DNA of 64,000 bases from Streptomyces griseoviridis (GTDB lineage Bacteria > Actinomycetota > Actinomycetes > Streptomycetales > Streptomycetaceae). The DNA lies in NCBI RefSeq assembly GCF_005222485.1, contig NZ_CP029078.1, positions 3,903,501 through 3,967,500 of the forward strand. Reading direction: 5' to 3'. The notes beneath the pieces are model-generated. The model had not been told where the DNA came from. It saw nothing but the letters and a program-made list of their open reading frames with translations, and made no database searches. Positions 44,474 to 53,008 of the stretch are shown here, one piece after another. Both the position numbers and the translations under genes were made by a program. Each line of letters begins with the position of its first letter. Positions within the stretch are counted from its first letter, which is position 1.

Positions 44474-46354
44474 ATGCCCGCGAACCCTGAACCGGAGCCG
44501 CCCGCCGTACCGGCGGAGGCGGTCGCGCCCCTGATCCGCGGGGTCTCCGTGCTGCGGGCGCTGACCGAGGCGGGCGGCGCGCTGAGCCCGAGCGGCCTCG
44601 AACGGGCGACGGGCCTGGCCCGTTCCACGGTGGACCGGGTCACCGCGACGCTCACCCGGATGGGACACGTACGGATGGACGGCCGCGACGCGGTCCTCGC
44701 CCCGGGCGTGATGCGGCTGGGCAACGCGTATCTGGCGGCGCTGCGGCTGCCGTCGCTGCTGGGCGGGCACGCGGACGCCCTCGCCGACGAACTGGACGAG
44801 TCGGTGTCCCTGGCGGTGCCCGACGGCGACGGCGTCCGCTTCGTCCACCAGGCGACGCGACGCCGCGCGATGTCCCTCGCCTTCCGCATCGGCGACCTCC
44901 TGCCGTCCGAACGCACCGCGCCCGGACCGCTGTTCGCGACCGAGTGGACGGAGCGGGAGTGGCGGAGCTGGCGCGACCGGAGCACGACGGACGCGAGGGC
45001 CAGGGACTACCCGGCGCTGCCGCAGGAGGAGTTGAGACAGCGGACACCCGAAATCCCGTACGGCGCTGAGACGTTGAACGCAACGTTTTCCCGCCGGGTG
45101 AAGGAGGCGGCGGAGACGGGCTGGGCGCTCGACGACCAGTTGATCGAACCGGGTCTCGTGGCGGTCGCGGTGCCGGTGCGGGACCCGCGCGGCGGCCGGA
45201 TCGTGTGCGCGGTGAGCGTGGTGAGCCACACCAGCAGACACTCGGCGGCGGAGCTGCGGGACACGCTGCTGCCGAGGCTGCGGTCGGCGGTGGCCCGGAT
45301 GGAACGGACCCTGCGGACGGCGGGCCCGCCGCAGCAGACGGCGGCGCCGTCCGGGCTCGCGACCTGGACGGGGTCGTCGAAGCAGGAACTGGGCCGGGAG
45401 TTCGTGGAGTCGCTGGCCCGCGGACTGACGGTGCTGACGGCGTTCGGGGAGGGCCGGGCTGCGCTCACCCTGACGGACGTGGCGAAGGCGACGGGCCTGG
45501 CACGGGCGACGGCCCGGCGCGCGCTGATCACCTACGAGCACCTGGGCCTGGTGGCGCCGGGCGAGGACCCCAGGACGTTCACGCTGACGCCGCGGGTCCT
45601 CTCGCTCGGCTATCCGCCGCTGTCCCGCACGACGCTGCCCCAGATCGCGACCCCGCACCTGGCGTCGCTGTCGGCGCGGACGAACGAGTCGTCGTCGCTG
45701 GCGATCCTGGTACCGGGCGCGGGCGCCCTGGCCGAGATCCAGTACACGGCGCGGGTGGCGACGACGCGGGTGATGAGCGTGAACATCGCGGTGGGCACCC
45801 GCCTGCCGGCGTACGCGACCGCACTGGGCCGCGTCCTCCTGGCGGACCCCCCACCGACACCCCCGCCCCCACACGGGCCGACGCCCGCAACCCCCCTCCC
45901 CCGCCTGACCCCACACGGGCCGACGCCCCCAACCCTCCTCCCCCGCCTGACCCCGCACACGGTGGCGGCCCCGACGCCCGTCTCCGCGCCCCTACCGCCC
46001 CGCCTGACGTCGCACGGGTCGACGGCCCCGACGGCCCACGCGGCGCCCCTCCCGCGCCTGACCTCGCGGACGGTGACGGACCCGACGGCCCTCTCCCGCC
46101 TCCTCGAACGCGCCCGCGCGGATGGATTCGCCCTGGTGGAAGAGGAGTTGGAGGAGGGCCTGCGCTCGATCGCGGTCCCGGTCCGCGACCGCGCGGGCCG
46201 AGCGGTGGCGGCGGTGAACATCGCCCTGCACGCGTCCCGCCACACCCTGAGAGAGTGCGAGACGAACCTCCTGCCGGCCCTGCGCCAGACGGCGACGGAC
46301 ATCGAACGCGACCTGAGAGTGGCGAGCCGCTTCACCCGTGTACCACTGACGTGA
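44474..46354 (+). CDS. Double IclR family regulator with repeat-expanded effector domain
   Basis: A 626-residue protein made of two complete IclR units in tandem. Unit 1: HTH at about residues 21-75 (LSPSGLERATGLARSTVDRV) and effector domain to about 275. Unit 2: HTH at about 308-370 (LTLTDVAKATGLARATARRA) and an effector domain of PcaR/PobR type (ATTRVMSVNIAVGTRLPAY, LVEEELEEGLRSIAVPVRD). Between residues 459 and 532 unit 2 is interrupted by a Pro/Thr-rich repeat containing PRLT four times. Tandem IclR fusions are known in actinomycetes, often for aromatic catabolism, but no such genes are adjacent. Confidence 0.85.
   Translation: MPANPEPEPPAVPAEAVAPLIRGVSVLRALTEAGGALSPSGLERATGLARSTVDRVTATLTRMGHVRMDGRDAVLAPGVMRLGNAYLAALRLPSLLGGHADALADELDESVSLAVPDGDGVRFVHQATRRRAMSLAFRIGDLLPSERTAPGPLFATEWTEREWRSWRDRSTTDARARDYPALPQEELRQRTPEIPYGAETLNATFSRRVKEAAETGWALDDQLIEPGLVAVAVPVRDPRGGRIVCAVSVVSHTSRHSAAELRDTLLPRLRSAVARMERTLRTAGPPQQTAAPSGLATWTGSSKQELGREFVESLARGLTVLTAFGEGRAALTLTDVAKATGLARATARRALITYEHLGLVAPGEDPRTFTLTPRVLSLGYPPLSRTTLPQIATPHLASLSARTNESSSLAILVPGAGALAEIQYTARVATTRVMSVNIAVGTRLPAYATALGRVLLADPPPTPPPPHGPTPATPLPRLTPHGPTPPTLLPRLTPHTVAAPTPVSAPLPPRLTSHGSTAPTAHAAPLPRLTSRTVTDPTALSRLLERARADGFALVEEELEEGLRSIAVPVRDRAGRAVAAVNIALHASRHTLRECETNLLPALRQTATDIERDLRVASRFTRVPLT
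45848..46069 (+). repeat. 42-bp coding repeat within the IclR gene
   Basis: A 42-bp (14-residue) period is visible from 45869 to 45960 (the CCA/CCG-CAC codons recur at 45911 and 45953), with more diverged copies to 46069. The protein motif is PLPRLTPHGPTPPT, apparently an expansion of the native LPRLTSRTVTDP segment. Confidence 0.8.
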
Positions 46355-46678: not shown

Positions 46679-46751
46679 GCCTTCGTAGCTCAGGGGATAG
46701 AGCACCGCTCTCCTAAAGCGGGTGTCGCAGGTTCGAATCCTGCCGGGGGCA
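46679..46751 (+). tRNA. tRNA-Arg (anticodon CCT)
   Basis: A 73-nucleotide cloverleaf: acceptor GCCTTCG with CGGGGGC (two G-U pairs), D-arm GCTC...GAGC, anticodon stem CCGCT/AGCGG with loop CTCCTAA giving CCT (codon AGG), T-arm GCAGG-TTCGAAT-CCTGC, discriminator A. CCA is not encoded. This tRNA is a common integration site for actinomycete mobile elements, and a relaxase-like remnant follows it. Confidence 0.95.
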
Positions 46752-46770
46752 CACGATCGACCAGGGCAGA

Positions 46771-47213: not shown

Positions 47214-47546
47214 TCACCTCTGTGCTGGGCCCCCGCCGTCCGATGTGGGTGGCTGGGTCTTGCGGTGCTTGCCGGTGCCGGAGCCGAGCGGCTTCGGCAC
47301 CGGCCCGGTCGGCGTCGGCGTCGGCTCATTGGTCTCGGGATGCAGGAGGGCCTTGGCCTCCGCCAGGTTGGCGACGAAGCCGTACGGCTCCCATGCGTGT
47401 CCGTTCCAGCGCTCGATGGCTCGGGGTGCGTCCGGGTGCAGGTGGGATGCCTTGGGGCCATCGCCGGAGACGATCGGTAGGGCGCGAAGTCGGCCGATCT
47501 TCGAGTCGCGGCGTTCCGCCCACTCCTTCAGCGGCTCGTCGTCCAT
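47214..47546 (-). CDS. DUF6087-type small protein
   Basis: A 110-residue hydrophilic protein. MDDEPLKEWAERRDSKIGRLRAL, ASHLHPDAPRAIERWNGHAW and EPYGFVANLAEAKALL follow the pattern of the Streptomyces DUF6087 family; the last 40 residues are Pro/Thr/Gly-rich. Function unknown. The ATG at 47544-47546 is the only good start. It lies 33 bases downstream of the tgmC gene on the same strand and may belong to that transcript. Confidence 0.7.
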   Translation of the reverse strand: MDDEPLKEWAERRDSKIGRLRALPIVSGDGPKASHLHPDAPRAIERWNGHAWEPYGFVANLAEAKALLHPETNEPTPTPTGPVPKPLGSGTGKHRKTQPPTSDGGGPAQR

Positions 47547-47579: not shown

Positions 47580-48767
47580 TCAGGAGGGTAGCCGCCACTG
47601 TGGGCCGCTCGGGTTTCCGAGCCAGACGACCTGTCTGTCGCGAGAGACGGTCACTCCGAACGCGGCGGTGCTCGGTGTGCCGTGCTCCTCCCAGGTGGCG
47701 ATGGCCGACTCGATCATGTCCCAGAGACGTCGGGGGCCGCCCTGCCGGACCTCACAGCCGCTGTCGGCAGCGGTGATTACGGCGAAGGAATCGGTGACGC
47801 TGTCCAGTACGAACGTGCTGAGCGGGCCGCCGTCGACAGCCAGGGAGAAGAACCGGGCATCGGGTGCGGCGAGTTGGGCCATGAACGCCGGCCCGGAGTC
47901 GGTGAGCGCCTCTGGCCCGTGCGTGGTCTTCCGGACCGTACCGTCGTCGGGTCCCGGGACCATGCCCAGGTTCTCCGGTGCCTCCTGTTGGCGCGCGATC
48001 ATGAAGCTCGGGTCGTCCTCGCTGAACCAGCCGCTCGCGCTGTCCCCGGCGGTGATGAGTTTGACCAGGCCGAGGGAGCGCATCCAGCCGCGCAGGGTGG
48101 TGAGGATGACGCCGCCCGGCCGTACCTGTTCCAGCCAGGAGGGTGGGATGTTGCGGAAGCCGCAGGTGGCGATCAGCCGGTCGTACGGCGCTCCGTCCGG
48201 GTGGCCGGCGCGGCCGTCCCCCACCAGCAGGTGCGGGCCGTGGCCGGACTCGGTGAGGGCCTCGCGGGCCCTCCGCGCCACGCCCTCGTCCGTCTCGATC
48301 GACGTCACGTTCCCGCTGCCGAGCCGGTGGCACATCAGGGCCGTCGAGTAGCCGGTGCCCGTGCCGATCTCCAACACGTCCATGCCGTCGTGCACGTCCA
48401 GATCTTCCAGCATCCGAACGACCAGGCTCGGCAGGGTCGATGACGAGGTCGGGGTCGCGTTGCTGATCGGCTTCGGATCGGTCCAGTCGATGTCGTGGCC
48501 GTCGAACTGGGTCATCCAGGTCTCGTCGGTGTAGACGAGCCGGAGCCACTCATCCTGGCCGGCGGTCTCCGGCGTCACGGGCTCCCAGGTGGTGACGCCG
48601 GGTGCGTCGTTCTCCCGGTAGAAGCGCGGAAGGAAAATGTGGCGGGGCACCGCTTCGACGGCGGCTCGCCACTGCGGCGACCGCAGCCGGGCGTCCTCCT
48701 CCAGCCGGTGAGCGAGCCGAAGCCGTAGATCGGCAGCGGCCGTCTCGATAGCGAGCTCACTGGCCAC
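47580..48767 (-). CDS. tgmC: PIMT-type methyltransferase of the ATP-grasp peptide maturase system
   Basis: A 395-residue protein: N-terminal helical region with SPQWRAAVEAVPRHIFLPRF, then a protein-isoaspartate methyltransferase fold with SAM motif DVLEIGTGTGYSTALMCHRL and the PIMT segments PTSSSTLPSLVVRML and LLVGDGRAGHP, and a roughly 160-residue extension typical of RiPP-associated PIMTs. It should methylate an Asp side chain of the peptide, which can lead to aspartimide. The GTG at 48765-48767 has AAGGAGG seven bases upstream and overlaps tgmB by 11 bases. Confidence 0.9.
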   Translation of the reverse strand: MASELAIETAAADLRLRLAHRLEEDARLRSPQWRAAVEAVPRHIFLPRFYRENDAPGVTTWEPVTPETAGQDEWLRLVYTDETWMTQFDGHDIDWTDPKPISNATPTSSSTLPSLVVRMLEDLDVHDGMDVLEIGTGTGYSTALMCHRLGSGNVTSIETDEGVARRAREALTESGHGPHLLVGDGRAGHPDGAPYDRLIATCGFRNIPPSWLEQVRPGGVILTTLRGWMRSLGLVKLITAGDSASGWFSEDDPSFMIARQQEAPENLGMVPGPDDGTVRKTTHGPEALTDSGPAFMAQLAAPDARFFSLAVDGGPLSTFVLDSVTDSFAVITAADSGCEVRQGGPRRLWDMIESAIATWEEHGTPSTAAFGVTVSRDRQVVWLGNPSGPQWRLPS

Positions 48768-49731
48768 GGATGCCTCCTTCCAGGAGATCGGCGAGGGCGG
48801 CGGTCATGGGCAGACCGGTGGGCGGCTCCATCCACGCCCACTGGCCAGAAGGATTGCACTCGATGAAGATCCACTCGCCACAGTCGGTCAGAGCGAAGTC
48901 GAACGCTCCGAAGACGAGCCCGAAGTGCTCGAGATAGGCACGCATCGACCGTGCCACCGCGGGCGGGGCCGCGAGCGGCGTGTACGTGTGGGTGCTGTAG
49001 TCCGTCCGCCAGTCGAGCAGACCGGAGTCGATTCGCACCGCGAAGGTCTGCTCGCCGAGCACCGTGACCCGGATGTCGGCGACCTTGTCCACGCGCTTCT
49101 GGAAGAGGTGCATGGTGCCGGTGACGGAGTCGTCGATCTCGTCGGCGCACACCTCCGTCACGGGGACGGTCTGCGCGTGGCCGTCGACCAGATAGAGCGG
49201 AACCGAGATCGGCTTGAAGATGGCCGGGCCGTGCTCCTTGAGGAAGGCCCGTGCGTCTTCCGGAACGTTGGTGATGAGCGTGGGCGGCACCGTGAAGCCA
49301 GCAGCCGCCGCTGCCGCGAGACCGACGGGCTTGTACTCGGCGTCGCCGATGCGGTTGGGGTGGTTGACGTAGAGGCAGCCAGGCAGGGACGTCAGGATGC
49401 CGCCGAGCCCGTAGCGGGCCTGGGCCACGGCGAACCGTTCGTCCTGCCTGTCGAGGTGAGGGAAGGCGAACCCGGAGGGGCGCCAGTAGTACATGGAGCG
49501 CACGGCGCCCAATTCGGCATGTCGGCTCGGGGTCCGCACGCTTCCCCGCCAGCCGTCGGTGTCACCGCCGATGGTGGCCGAGCACGACAGGGTGGCCGGG
49601 AAGTCACCGGAGTCGAACCGCACGACCGGGACACCCCGGTCGTGCAGCTCGGCGATCACGAAGTCCGCGGTCGGGTCGTCGAGGTTGGTGACGATCAGGA
49701 CCGGACGCTCGTCGTTCTTCACCACAGTCAC
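48757..49731 (-). CDS. tgmB: ATP-grasp RiPP maturase (graspetide ligase, SAV_5884-like)
   Basis: A 324-residue ATP-grasp ligase. RPVLIVTNLDDPTADFVIAE at the N-terminus; nucleotide-binding GPAIFKPISVP; LFQKRVDKVADIRVTVLGEQ; and the metal-binding C-terminal IFIECNPSGQWAWME. Enzymes of this group activate Asp/Glu side chains with ATP and join them to Ser/Thr or Lys of a precursor peptide, forming ester or amide macrocycles. The GTG at 49729-49731 overlaps the precursor stop (GTGA), so it is translationally coupled to the substrate gene. Confidence 0.93.
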   Translation of the reverse strand: MTVVKNDERPVLIVTNLDDPTADFVIAELHDRGVPVVRFDSGDFPATLSCSATIGGDTDGWRGSVRTPSRHAELGAVRSMYYWRPSGFAFPHLDRQDERFAVAQARYGLGGILTSLPGCLYVNHPNRIGDAEYKPVGLAAAAAAGFTVPPTLITNVPEDARAFLKEHGPAIFKPISVPLYLVDGHAQTVPVTEVCADEIDDSVTGTMHLFQKRVDKVADIRVTVLGEQTFAVRIDSGLLDWRTDYSTHTYTPLAAPPAVARSMRAYLEHFGLVFGAFDFALTDCGEWIFIECNPSGQWAWMEPPTGLPMTAALADLLEGGIRGQ

Positions 49732-50030
49732 TGGTCGGTGTCGTTGCCCGTGTCGCTGTCCGGGGAGTCGCTGTTGCGGTCCCCCTGGCCGGTCGTGCCG
49801 GTCTTGGGGTTCGTACCGGAAGACGTGCCGTGGCCGGGGGACATGGTGGGCGCCCCGGAAGCGTCGAAGTACCGGGCGGTCTGCGTCGCCGGGTCCAACT
49901 CCACCGTCGCGTGACCGGAGTCCTCGACGGGCGGGTACGGGGCGATCCGGCGCAGGCCCCATGGGACGGCGGTCAGGTGTCCCTGTGGCAGCGGGCTGCC
50001 CGTGGGAAAGCGATCCATGTGGTTGAACAC
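49728..50030 (-). CDS. tgmA: ATP-grasp-modified RiPP precursor
   Basis: A 100-residue precursor. The leader contains MDRFPTGSPLPQGHL, PWGLRRIAPYPPV and TVELDPATQTARYFDASG, the recognition pattern of ATP-grasp target peptides. The C-terminal core (about residues 64-100) is Thr/Ser/Asp-rich: GHGTSSGTNPKTGTTG then DRNSDSPDSDTGNDTDQ. That gives many possible acceptor hydroxyls and donor carboxylates. The GTG at 50028-50030 is chosen because AAAGGAAG lies just upstream; the ATG 12 bases later is the alternative. Overlaps tgmB by four bases. Confidence 0.88.
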   Translation of the reverse strand: MFNHMDRFPTGSPLPQGHLTAVPWGLRRIAPYPPVEDSGHATVELDPATQTARYFDASGAPTMSPGHGTSSGTNPKTGTTGQGDRNSDSPDSDTGNDTDQ

Positions 50031-50147: not shown

Positions 50148-50507
50148 TCAGACCGGCACGAGAACTTGCCGTCGAAGGCCCTCAAGCACTCGCGTGAGCA
50201 GGACTGCTTCCGGCTCCCCGGCCTCGACGGCTTCTCGGCCCTCGGCGTACCAGCGGCCGAGATGCCGCTGCCACGCGTAGTCCGCTCGAACCACCTCGGC
50301 GCGCATCTCCCCGAGCGCCAGGTCGGACTCCATGCGCAGCCGGAGGAGATCGGCAGGTGTGATGCGCAGCGGCTCGGCGAACTTCGGCGGATCGCAAGCT
50401 CCTGCCGACTGGAGTGGACCGAGGGTGATGTCGACGCAGGCGTCCGGATTCGGGTCAGCCACCAACTCGTGGGCCCCCATGAGCCGTAACGAGATGCGGG
50501 GCCTCAC
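50148..50507 (-). CDS. Hypothetical protein with TTA codon
   Basis: A 119-residue acidic, mostly helical protein (LMGAHELVADPNPDACVDIT, LRITPADLLRLRMESDLALG, WQRHLGRWYAEGREAVEAGE). No family is recognised. The GTG at 50505-50507 overlaps the stop of the anti-sigma-type ATPase (GTGA), so the two are coupled. The seventh codon is TTA, which makes translation dependent on bldA. It lies 117 bases upstream of tgmA on the same strand; a link to the RiPP cassette is possible but unproven. Confidence 0.75.
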   Translation of the reverse strand: MRPRISLRLMGAHELVADPNPDACVDITLGPLQSAGACDPPKFAEPLRITPADLLRLRMESDLALGEMRAEVVRADYAWQRHLGRWYAEGREAVEAGEPEAVLLTRVLEGLRRQVLVPV

Positions 50508-50941
50508 CGTGCGACCGGCGCTTCCGCGCCCGGCACTTTCAGCTCGGCCCACACGACCTTGCCCCGGCGCTTTCGGTCGTAGCCCCATCTCCAGCTGAGG
50601 GCCTCGACCAGGAGCAGGCCGCGCCCTCCCTCCGAGTCGTCGTCGGGGTCGCCCGGCTCGGGAGTGTCCCGGCAGTTGTCCGCGACACCGATGCGCACCA
50701 CACCCTCGGCCGGCCGCGTGACCCGGACCTGGACGACACGGCACCGCGTATGACGGACCGCGTTGTTGACCAGCTCGGCGACGACCTGGACCCCATCCCC
50801 GGCCAACTCACCTATGCCCCAGGCGTCCAGGACAGCGGCGACGAGCAGACGGGCCCGGCGAGCGGATTCCCGCTCACACGGCATCGTCTCGGTGTACCCG
50901 GGTGCGCCGGTCGCAGTAGGTCGAGCTGCGGTCATGGTCAC
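50504..50941 (-). CDS. RsbW-like ATP-binding protein (HATPase_c, anti-sigma type)
   Basis: A 145-residue GHKL ATPase. N box: VQVVAELVNNAVRHTRCRVV; G1: VRIGVADNC; G2: SEGGRGLLLVEALSWRWGYD. Streptomyces has dozens of such small kinases, usually without a known sigma factor, often beside XRE regulators and small proteins, as here. The GTG at 50939-50941 has GGAGGG eight bases upstream; the ATG six bases on is less well placed. It diverges from the XRE regulator gene. Confidence 0.88.
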   Translation of the reverse strand: MTMTAARPTATGAPGYTETMPCERESARRARLLVAAVLDAWGIGELAGDGVQVVAELVNNAVRHTRCRVVQVRVTRPAEGVVRIGVADNCRDTPEPGDPDDDSEGGRGLLLVEALSWRWGYDRKRRGKVVWAELKVPGAEAPVAR

Positions 50942-51188
50942 GAGAACATCCCTCCAAGGGTGGGACGCCCGCCCCGCCGACGGGGTGACGACGGAACAGG
51001 CCCTTCTCCATGCCGTCGGAAGGAAAGGAGAAGGGGGACCTTCCGACGGGCGATGACCAGTCAACGACCCGCGGCAGGAAGGGAACAGGAAAGGTCGCTC
51101 ACTCGCCGGTCGCCTCGAACCGGAAGACTTTACGGTCCCGTGACCTGTGGGCTGGTTCGCTCGATGCTGCCGGTCTACCGTCGAAGGC

Positions 51189-52445
51189 ATGGCAGCGAAC
51201 GCCATCCTCAAGAACCGGATGGCCGAACTCGGGCTCACGCAGGACGAATTAGCAGGTCGGATGAACACGGCACTCGCGGACATCACCGGCCGACCCGGCG
51301 ACGTCTCCGCCCGGACGGTACGCAACCTGCTGAACGGAACCTCGCGCCGGCCCATCGGACGCACATGCGCCGCTCTGGAGCGGGTGTTCGGCTGTCCGGT
51401 CGAGGATCTAGGGTTCAACGCACCACGCACCACGCACCACCCGCAGGAGGAGGATCCCGTGCGGCGTCGCACCTTCATCGCCTCAGCCACCGGGACCGCA
51501 GCCGCAGCCGTCCCCTTGGTGGCCCAACGCCGCGCCGTCGGCCTGTCGGACGTGGCACGCGCAGCCGCCGGAATGAACGCACTCGTCGAGGCCGACGACC
51601 GCCAAGGCGGCCACTTCGAACTGGAAAGGGCAGCCGCCACAGGCCGCGACGGCGTTCTGGAGTTGCAGCAGCGCAACGCCAGTGAACGCGTCCGCCGCGC
51701 CCTGTACGCACTGGCCGCCGAGTACACCACCATCGCGGCCTGGTCCTGCATCGACGCCCGCAATCTCGACCAGGCGCAGAAGTACCTGAACGAATCCGCG
51801 ACGTACGCCGGTCTCTCCCAGGACGGCCCCACCGAGATCCGGGTGTGGGTCAACCTCTCCATGCTCGCCTACCAGCGGCACAACTGGCCCGAGGCACTCG
51901 CGGCGGCACAAGCCGCCCAAGTTTCCTACGCAGCCCGCCGGGACCCGTTCTTCGACTCACTGGGCCGAGTCCGCGCCGCCCTCGCGTACGCGGCCCTCGG
52001 GGACGGACGGGCCGGCCTGCGGTCCCTGAAATCTGCCCAGGACACCTACACCAGGACGATGGAGCGCGAACGCCCGCGCTGGACGGCCTTCTACGGCCAG
52101 GCCGAACTCGACCACCTCGCCGCCGTCGTGCAATTCAACAGCGGGCGCCCCGCCCACGCCGAGGCCATGGCCCACCGTGCCCTGGCCCAGATCCCGGCAG
52201 CTTTCCGGCGCAACAAGGCCCTCGCCACCGCACAGCTCGCCCTCGCTCAGCTCCAGCAGGGCGACGCCGAGCAAGCCACGGTGACCGCCTCCGACGTCTT
52301 CACGATCATGGACGGTGATCCCCTGCCGGGCCGCATGCGCACGCTCATCGGCGACTTCCACCGGGACCTGTTCGTCCGGGCCCCCTCCACCGCCTACGCA
52401 CGAGACTGGGCCGACCGCATGCGAACCGAATGGAGCCGAGCGTGA
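51189..52445 (+). CDS. XRE family regulator with TPR-like C-terminal domain
   Basis: A 418-residue regulator. The N-terminal HTH (residues about 5-75: ILKNRMAELGLTQDELAGRM, SARTVRNLLNGTSRRPIGRT) is followed by a linker with RRRTFIASATGTAAAAVPLV and a helical repeat domain (ALYALAAEYTTIAAWSCIDA, QKYLNESATYAGLSQDGPTE) resembling tetratricopeptide sensors that bind peptides. Codon 18 (DELAG) is TTA, so it is bldA-dependent. The ATG at 51189 has GAAGG just upstream. It diverges from the ATPase gene and overlaps the GNAT gene. Confidence 0.88.
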   Translation: MAANAILKNRMAELGLTQDELAGRMNTALADITGRPGDVSARTVRNLLNGTSRRPIGRTCAALERVFGCPVEDLGFNAPRTTHHPQEEDPVRRRTFIASATGTAAAAVPLVAQRRAVGLSDVARAAAGMNALVEADDRQGGHFELERAAATGRDGVLELQQRNASERVRRALYALAAEYTTIAAWSCIDARNLDQAQKYLNESATYAGLSQDGPTEIRVWVNLSMLAYQRHNWPEALAAAQAAQVSYAARRDPFFDSLGRVRAALAYAALGDGRAGLRSLKSAQDTYTRTMERERPRWTAFYGQAELDHLAAVVQFNSGRPAHAEAMAHRALAQIPAAFRRNKALATAQLALAQLQQGDAEQATVTASDVFTIMDGDPLPGRMRTLIGDFHRDLFVRAPSTAYARDWADRMRTEWSRA

Positions 52446-53008
52446 CCGACCTGCGTCATCACCAGCACGGAAACCTCCCCGAAGGCTTCCGGCAGATGCT
52501 CATCGACGTACACGCCGACGCCTACGCCGACCAGATGGACGACCCCTTCCACCAGCGTTTCGCCTGGTTCGCCGACCACTGGTCCGGCATGGACGGCTTC
52601 TCCTGCGTCGTGGCCTACGACGGGGACGAACCGACCGGCTTCGCCTACGGCGCCCCGCTCACGCCCGGCCGCGAGTGGTGGCGCTCCACCGGCTACCAGC
52701 CGAACAACGGCTACTCCTCCACTTACGCCGTGTCCGAGGTCATGGTGCGCCCCCGCTGGCGCAAGCAGGGAATCTCCGAACGACTCCACGAAGCGCTCCT
52801 GAAGGAGCGAACGGAAGACCTCGCCGTACTCCTCGTCGACGTGACCCACCCCAAGGTGCAGGCGCTCTACGAGTCGTGGGGGTACGCCAAGGCCGGCGAG
52901 CAGCAACCGTTCGCGGACTCACCGGTGTACGCCGTCATGGTCAAGCCGCTCCGTCGACTGGCCGGGCCGGTTGACGTCGCTTCAGGTGTCGACCACCTGG
53001 CCTCCTGA
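52442..53008 (+). CDS. GNAT family N-acetyltransferase
   Basis: A 188-residue single-domain acetyltransferase: FSCVVAYDGDEPTGFAYGAP, then motif A SEVMVRPRWRKQGISERLHE (R-x-x-G-I/S form) and motif B VDVTHPKVQALYESWGYAKA. The GTG at 52442 overlaps the XRE stop (GTGA), so it is expressed with the regulator, an XRE-GNAT pairing common in Streptomyces. The acceptor is unknown. Confidence 0.9.
   Translation: MTDLRHHQHGNLPEGFRQMLIDVHADAYADQMDDPFHQRFAWFADHWSGMDGFSCVVAYDGDEPTGFAYGAPLTPGREWWRSTGYQPNNGYSSTYAVSEVMVRPRWRKQGISERLHEALLKERTEDLAVLLVDVTHPKVQALYESWGYAKAGEQQPFADSPVYAVMVKPLRRLAGPVDVASGVDHLAS

What the first reader, a model, noticed from the sequence alone, without database searches (positions are those of the whole stretch)
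47580..50030. Graspetide (ATP-grasp RiPP) cassette with a PIMT-type methyltransferase
Seen: a Thr/Ser/Asp-rich 100-residue precursor overlaps an ATP-grasp ligase by GTGA, which overlaps a PIMT-fold methyltransferase by 11 bases. Known: such trios make ester/amide cross-linked peptides, and the PIMT can create aspartimide. Inference: the core lies after YFDASG, where at least eight Thr/Ser and seven Asp are available, so the ring pattern may be new. A bldA-dependent hypothetical gene and an anti-sigma-type ATPase lie just upstream.
Basis: partly seen in the sequence, partly recalled or inferred. Interest (0 to 1): 0.75.

Follow-up and report, generated by a model that had tools for sequence, protein, structure and literature searches.

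The report
Conserved Streptomyces graspimiditide gene cluster
These three Streptomyces genes probably make and modify a small ring-shaped peptide of an already described family; the likely ring plan is not new, but the peptide is unusually well conserved, its modified residue may be of a kind not yet tested, and the same regulator stands before other peptide pathways in some related species.

Summary
The trio is real and at the stated place. All three proteins exceed the curated cut-offs of a known three-part family (TIGR04186 precursor, TIGR04187 ATP-grasp, TIGR04188 methyltransferase): a group 13 graspetide or 'graspimiditide'. A new ring pattern is not supported: 47 of 65 distinct precursors share the stem T-x3-T-x3-T-x-T / D-x-D-x3-D-x-D, which fits four nested Thr-Asp esters as in amycolimiditide, or five with the C-terminus as proposed for SsfA. 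The loop differs: Asp-Arg (D84) and a second conserved Asp (D88), where the four characterised products have Asp-Gly. The core is under strong purifying selection (pN/pS 0.068 against 0.314 in the leader). The upstream ATPase and TTA-containing gene recur in close relatives, divergent from an NsdA-family regulator. In a few other Streptomyces that regulator stands beside FxLD-lanthipeptide or peptide-hydroxylase cassettes, though 41 of 64 regulator hits had neither cassette type searched. The ATP-grasp gene is frameshifted in 5 of 20 close loci, intact here. New member of a known kind; no product was observed.

The parts
49728..50030 (-). Precursor peptide, 100 aa, GTG start; TIGR04186 GRASP_targ / PF14408 Actino_peptide
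   Evidence: scanned as the 96-aa form; start codon by comparison
49956..49967 (-). Leader motif VPWG (aa 22-25), at the place of the RPFG recognition tetrapeptide of ThfA
   Evidence: P and W 23 of 23, G 19 of 23 distinct sequences; RPFG from PMC13003496 passages; equivalence is inference
49731..49841 (-). Core (aa 64-100): stem Thr 69, 73, 77, 79; stem Asp 91, 93, 97, 99; C-terminal Gln100
   Evidence: numbers residues from the 96-aa form: add 4
49761..49793 (-). Predicted loop TGQGDRNSDSP (aa 80-90) with D84 (Asp-Arg) and D88, the aspartimide candidates
   Evidence: site is inference
48757..49731 (-). ATP-grasp graspetide synthetase, 324 aa, TIGR04187
47580..48767 (-). PIMT-type O-methyltransferase, 395 aa, TIGR04188, with C-terminal domain
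47673..47693 (-). WXXXGXP motif (WEEHGTP, aa 359-365) of RiPP-associated PIMTs
   Evidence: 46 of 52 proteins, this one included, last 60 residues searched; motif from PMC13001092 section 11
50148..50507 (-). 119-aa gene, no NCBIfam, Pfam, PHROGs or PADLOC match; TTA codon 7 at 50487-50489, conserved in 24 of 26 rows
50504..50935 (-). HATPase of the PF13581 kind (anti-sigma-type label recalled), 143 aa
   Evidence: recurs next to the trio
51147..52445 (+). NsdA-family HTH/TPR regulator, divergent from the ATPase (true start may be inside)
   Evidence: NF053720, 283.9 bits, cut-off 75
52430..53008 (+). GNAT acetyltransferase that travels with the regulator
47214..47546 (-). DUF6087 small protein downstream of the trio
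   Evidence: PF19565 1.5e-34; at 60% identity or more in 12 of 20 close relatives, four of the other eight loci being too short to tell

Best explanation
A graspimiditide (group 13 graspetide) pathway. Shown: the gene order, overlaps, families, intact frames and conservation. Inferred: the ATP-grasp enzyme binds the leader near VPWG, activates Asp side chains and forms nested Thr-Asp esters, most likely T79-D91 (innermost), T77-D93, T73-D97 and T69-D99, possibly with a fifth ester to the C-terminal carboxylate. The PIMT enzyme then methylates a loop Asp (D84 preferred, D88 second), giving an aspartimide or isoaspartate. The leader is removed by an unknown protease. The upstream genes probably control expression, with a bldA-dependent step through the TTA codon of the 119-aa gene.
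For: Curated families over cut-off for all three proteins. The PIMT model (mean pLDDT 88.5) has the Thermotoga enzyme 1DL5, which carries a C-terminal domain (review), as its best PDB match, and the protein carries WXXXGXP. Stem spacing exact in 47 of 65 distinct precursors. Stem Thr, stem Asp, both loop Asp and the last Gln invariant in 23 of 23 distinct 96-aa coding sequences. Core pN/pS 0.068 against 0.314 in the leader. Residue numbers printed for SsfA (GluC fragment 63-97, fragment 66-97, G77-T78, D81-G82, N83, S89, four Asp and no Glu in the last 12) all fit the same stem. TTA conserved in 24 of 26 rows.
Against: No product or mass was seen. The four characterised products have Asp-Gly; Asp-Arg forms imide less readily (general chemistry, recalled). 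The leader has VPWG, not RPFG. The ATP-grasp gene is frameshifted in 5 of 20 close loci, so the pathway is dispensable in some strains. Ring pairing is inferred from spacing and precedent only, and the outermost step is uneven (four residues on the Thr side, two on the Asp side).
Confidence: 0.85

Rival explanations
1. Five-ester, SsfA-like connectivity: a fifth Ser or Thr is joined to the C-terminal carboxylate of Gln100.
For: SsfA's printed residue numbers fit the same stem, and SsfA has five esters with only four Asp in its last 12 residues. The C-terminal Gln is invariant 23 of 23.
Against: The SsfA sequence itself was not seen (figure only), so the identity of the stems is inferred. Amycolimiditide has four esters (passages).
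Confidence: 0.4
2. The methyltransferase acts on D88 (Asp-Ser/Ala) rather than D84 (Asp-Arg), or the reaction stops at a methyl ester.
For: D88 is as invariant as D84 in the 96-aa set, and Ser is among the possible following residues named in the review (PMC13001092 passages).
Against: D84 keeps the distance of five residues from the last stem Thr that the Asp-Gly of the sister GNPSDG loops has; those sisters lack D88. Arg is also among the residues named in the review.
Confidence: 0.3
3. A cluster in decline, little or not expressed in many strains.
For: ATP-grasp frameshifts at five different sites in 5 of 20 close loci, gene absent at one further locus.
Against: All genes intact in the window; core pN/pS 0.068; regulator in one frame in 12 of 12 relatives with near-full coverage.
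Confidence: 0.15
4. The ligase has another substrate and the overlapping peptide is not its target.
For: No direct test here.
Against: Precursor family match over cut-off, translational overlap, a precursor match in 35 of 37 ATP-grasp loci, and published co-expression of a relative (SsfA/SsfB).
Confidence: 0.03

Closest known systems
SsfA/SsfB/SsfM, Streptomyces sp. F-3 (PMC10787088; passages and section 6 read)
   Same: Gene trio in a Streptomyces; printed residue numbers fit the same Thr/Asp stem; a loop Asp is converted by the PIMT.
   Different: Asp-Gly-Asn in the loop against Asp-Arg-Asn here; its loop would be nine residues by the inferred numbering against eleven here.
Amycolimiditide, AmdA/AmdB/AmdM (described in PMC13001092, PMC13003496, PMC12291112; passages seen)
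   Same: Four nested esters with the aspartimide in the loop; ring formation from the loop outward is reported for it.
   Different: 29-residue peptide; Gly after the modified Asp; original paper not held.
Fuscimiditide, ThfA/ThfB/ThfM (PMC12291112, PMC13003496; passages seen)
   Same: Same three gene roles and order of reactions; Thr before, Asp after the loop.
   Different: Two esters (T3-D22, T7-D18); leader motif RPFG; original paper not held.
FxLD lanthipeptide systems (TIGR04363/TIGR04364)
   Same: PIMT-type methyltransferase; in three genomes it stands behind a homologous NsdA-family/GNAT/ATPase unit.
   Different: A lanthipeptide family, no ATP-grasp enzyme.

Membership tests
Group 13 graspetide (graspimiditide) | ATP-grasp synthetase of the SAV_5884 family | tested here: met
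   TIGR04187, 419.1 bits, cut-off 350
Group 13 graspetide (graspimiditide) | Adjacent PIMT homologue with extra C-terminal domain | tested here: met
   TIGR04188, 441.4 bits, cut-off 380; model's best PDB match 1DL5 over 374 alignment columns, though at rmsd 7.3
Group 13 graspetide (graspimiditide) | WXXXGXP motif near the PIMT C-terminus | tested here: met
   WEEHGTP aa 359-365
Group 13 graspetide (graspimiditide) | Precursor of the GRASP_targ family | tested here: met
   TIGR04186, 68.9 bits, cut-off 25
Group 13 graspetide (graspimiditide) | Conserved leader tetrapeptide RPFG | tested here: inconclusive
   VPWG here; PWG is common in the aligned relatives; RPFG is reported as the ThfA recognition sequence and highly conserved
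Group 13 graspetide (graspimiditide) | Thr stem before and Asp stem after a loop that holds an Asp | tested here: met
Group 13 graspetide (graspimiditide) | Loop Asp followed by Gly, as in the four characterised members | tested here: not met
   Asp-Arg and Asp-Ser here. A trait of the four, not a definition: the review names Arg and Ser among possible following residues
Group 13 graspetide (graspimiditide) | Esters and aspartimide in the product | not testable with these tools
   needs mass spectrometry or NMR

The most novel reading that the evidence does not exclude
The locus is one setting of a general peptide-control unit: an NsdA-family regulator with its acetyltransferase, divergent from an ATPase gene and sometimes closed by DUF6087, behind which different RiPP cassettes (graspimiditides of several core groups, FxLD lanthipeptides, a peptide-hydroxylase cassette) are exchanged, while here the peptide has become a near-invariant, bldA-gated signal carrying an Asp-Arg-derived aspartimide.
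Probability: 0.2. Interest if true: 0.6.

Novelty: new member of a known kind. Interest (0 to 1): 0.36.

Why it matters
The role of the Asp conversion in these peptides is described as largely unknown (PMC10787088 passages). A core kept almost unchanged across many Streptomyces loci, with a conserved TTA codon and a recurring regulator beside it, suggests a constant physiological role rather than a fast-changing weapon, and gives a testable case. If D84 is the site, it would also test aspartimide formation at Asp-Arg, which none of the four characterised members in the review shows.

Tried and rejected
Ring pattern 'new': rejected on the shared stem. ATG start at 50018: replaced by GTG at 50030. 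Solved structures for the precursor: only unrelated weak matches (best E 0.28); none for the core profile. PHROGs: one weak match of unknown function to the precursor (phrog_19861, E 0.0068). PADLOC: one match, mad2, to the methyltransferase part of the PIMT. tRNA beside the cluster: the tRNA-Arg at 46679-46752 has no counterpart in the 31 fetched loci scanned, two of which hold other tRNAs. Programmed frameshift in the ATP-grasp gene: rejected, the breaks are at five different sites. Library searches for amycolimiditide, albusimiditide and tgmA/tgmB did not list the original papers; those asked for are not held. Searches on bldA/graspetide, NsdA, FxLD and Asp-Arg were seen as listings only.

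Full report
WHAT IS THERE. On the - strand lie a precursor (49728-50030), an ATP-grasp ligase (48757-49731, GTGA overlap) and a PIMT-type methyltransferase (47580-48767, 11-base overlap). All three pass curated cut-offs: TIGR04186 68.9 bits (cut-off 25), TIGR04187 419.1 (350), TIGR04188 441.4 (380). The system is described as group 13 graspetides or graspimiditides; the review PMC13001092 (passages and section 11 seen) cites 1326 such clusters, 99% from Actinomycetota, and four characterised products. The 37 relatives found with the ATP-grasp protein are 31 Streptomyces loci, one Streptantibioticus and five Kribbella, so the window is most likely Streptomyces. Its genome has three further ATP-grasp hits of the family: two with other precursor-like and PIMT matches nearby, one without a convincing PIMT match.

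START. The GTG at 50030 is aligned with ATG, GTG or TTG in every row printed (distinct upstream sequences, precursor score 80 or more), while the in-frame ATG at 50018 is not conserved. I number the precursor from 50030 (100 aa). One search used a 96-aa form (add 4); searches used a form one residue longer (add 3 to positions).

CORE. In 97 loci, several of them the same place fetched twice, 82 open frames matched the precursor at E 1e-6, giving 65 distinct sequences. Of these, 47 carry the exact stem T-x3-T-x3-T-x-T ... D-x-D-x3-D-x-D; the other 18 include other core groups and broken or altered ends (L002, L040, L082). Loop lengths run from 6 to 16, eleven in 23 of 47. Among 33 precursors of exactly 96 aa (23 distinct coding sequences, the only ones used for this count), the four stem Thr, four stem Asp, both loop Asp and the last Gln are invariant. 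pN/pS is 0.068 for the core (aa 60-96 of that form), 0.314 for 1-59, 0.416 for 20-59 and 0.165 for 1-19. This is a plain pairwise counting estimate on related sequences, not a tree-based test.

RINGS. Fuscimiditide has nested T7-D18 and T3-D22, and amycolimiditide four nested cross-links (passages). Reading outward from the loop here gives T79-D91, T77-D93, T73-D97, T69-D99; the last step is uneven (four residues on the Thr side, two on the Asp side). SsfA has five esters with only four Asp in its last 12 residues, so its authors proposed the C-terminus as fifth partner. Its printed positions fit our stem, but its sequence is in a figure that I did not see. Four and five esters both remain open.

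LOOP. In the loops of the 47 stem-bearing precursors Asp-Arg occurs 24 times, Asp-Gly 22, Asp-Ser 20, Asp-Ala 6, Asp-Asp 1 and Asp-Thr 1. D84 keeps the spacing of the Asp in the sister GNPSDG loops; D88 is extra and invariant in the 96-aa set. The four characterised products have Asp-Gly, and Arg and Ser are among the following residues that the review calls possible.

METHYLTRANSFERASE. The model (23 aligned sequences, mean pLDDT 88.5, pTM 0.87) has 1DL5 of Thermotoga maritima as best PDB match (E 6.8e-17, TM 0.51/0.62, rmsd 7.3); the high rmsd means that domain placement or details differ. WXXXGXP is found in the last 60 residues of 46 of 52 proteins, ours included; of the six without it, L034 and L060 are frameshifted, L042 and L043 show one-residue variants, L014 and L027 have none there.

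NEIGHBOURS. In close relatives the order GNAT - regulator (divergent) / ATPase - 119-aa gene - precursor - ATP-grasp - PIMT - DUF6087 recurs. Exceptions: L031 and L038 show no regulator or GNAT and a distant ATPase (45-46%); L039 and L054 show no 119-aa gene, and L054 has only distant regulator, GNAT and ATPase; L032, L035 and L060 show no DUF6087; L114 has a 36% regulator and no 119-aa gene. More distant relatives mostly show only the trio at this threshold. PMC8939145 (section 7) already lists HATPase and helix-turn-helix/DUF5753 families as mostly linked to the actinobacterial ATP-grasp branch, and TPR proteins among associated families; PMC13097080 (passages) mentions DUF397/DUF5753 pairs. 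A regulatory association as such is therefore known. The TTA codon of the 119-aa gene is kept in 24 of 26 rows at 50% identity or more (the window and several relatives are each counted twice); the other two rows are one gene with TTG. No TTA occurs in the PIMT or ATPase rows; five ATP-grasp rows of relatives have one; the precursor was not counted.

CASSETTE EXCHANGE. The regulator has 64 hits at E 1e-100 in 63 of 392 genomes. In 18 a graspetide precursor lies within 8 kb, in 5 an FxLD methyltransferase, in 41 neither. The source lists are truncated and were typed in part, so the first two are lower bounds; uniform placement of 2 to 6 such loci per genome would give under one. Of the 15 hits at 79% identity or more, 13 stand by the precursor; the others are G082 (58-aa peptide, TIGR04267 peptide beta-hydroxylase, DUF6087; counted among the 41) and G104 (partial regulator, no window gene but GNAT beside it). 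For G340, G365 and G106 the FxLD methyltransferase is over its cut-off; the precursor was confirmed in L100 and a thiopep_ocin-domain protein in L099. Against the idea: in L103 and L105-L108 I recognised no RiPP cassette from a rough gene list (three proteins scanned), and L109-L112 were only compared with the window's own proteins, without a match to the trio.

DECAY. Among 21 close loci that I chose as distinct (the window's own included), counting stretches of 60% identity or more, the ATP-grasp gene is present in 20 and frameshifted in 5, around codons 53, 129, 131, 255 and 258. The precursor is in one frame in 21 of 21 (one, L117, with an altered end); outside this set the precursor of L040 is broken. 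The regulator is in one frame in 12 of 12 relatives with near-full coverage, the ATPase in 16 of 17, and the PIMT is broken or short in 2 of 16 that could be judged. Sequencing error cannot be excluded for drafts, and the difference from the regulator was not tested.

VERDICT. An ordinary but well-conserved member of a known family. The useful leads are the Asp-Arg loop, the selection on the core, the conserved TTA codon, and the different cassettes behind a shared regulator.

Noticed in passing
window 50504-53008; L098-L102, L104: The NsdA-family regulator, GNAT and (in most of these) ATPase unit stands in some other Streptomyces before FxLD lanthipeptide, peptide-hydroxylase or other graspimiditide cassettes.
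   Followed up: partly
L058, L060, L062, L071, L074; L117: The ATP-grasp gene is frameshifted at five different sites in close relatives and absent at one locus, with the precursor mostly intact.
   Followed up: partly
window 50487-50489: TTA codon in the 119-aa gene, conserved in 24 of 26 rows although the protein diverges to about 51% identity.
   Followed up: yes
L118, L119, L120 (same genome): Three further ATP-grasp loci of the family in this genome; L118 has a different core (HKRSETSKETKTKT type), L120 shows no convincing PIMT match.
   Followed up: partly
window 46679-46752: tRNA-Arg (CCT) gene beside the cluster; no tRNA-Arg in the 31 fetched loci scanned; no integrase was looked for.
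   Followed up: partly
window 44474-46354: A 626-aa open frame that looks like two IclR-type regulator halves in one gene (by eye only).
   Followed up: no
precursor aa 6-17: N-terminal leader stretch DRFPTGSPLPQG is nearly invariant in the 23 distinct close sequences and changed or missing in other core groups; its role is unknown.
   Followed up: no
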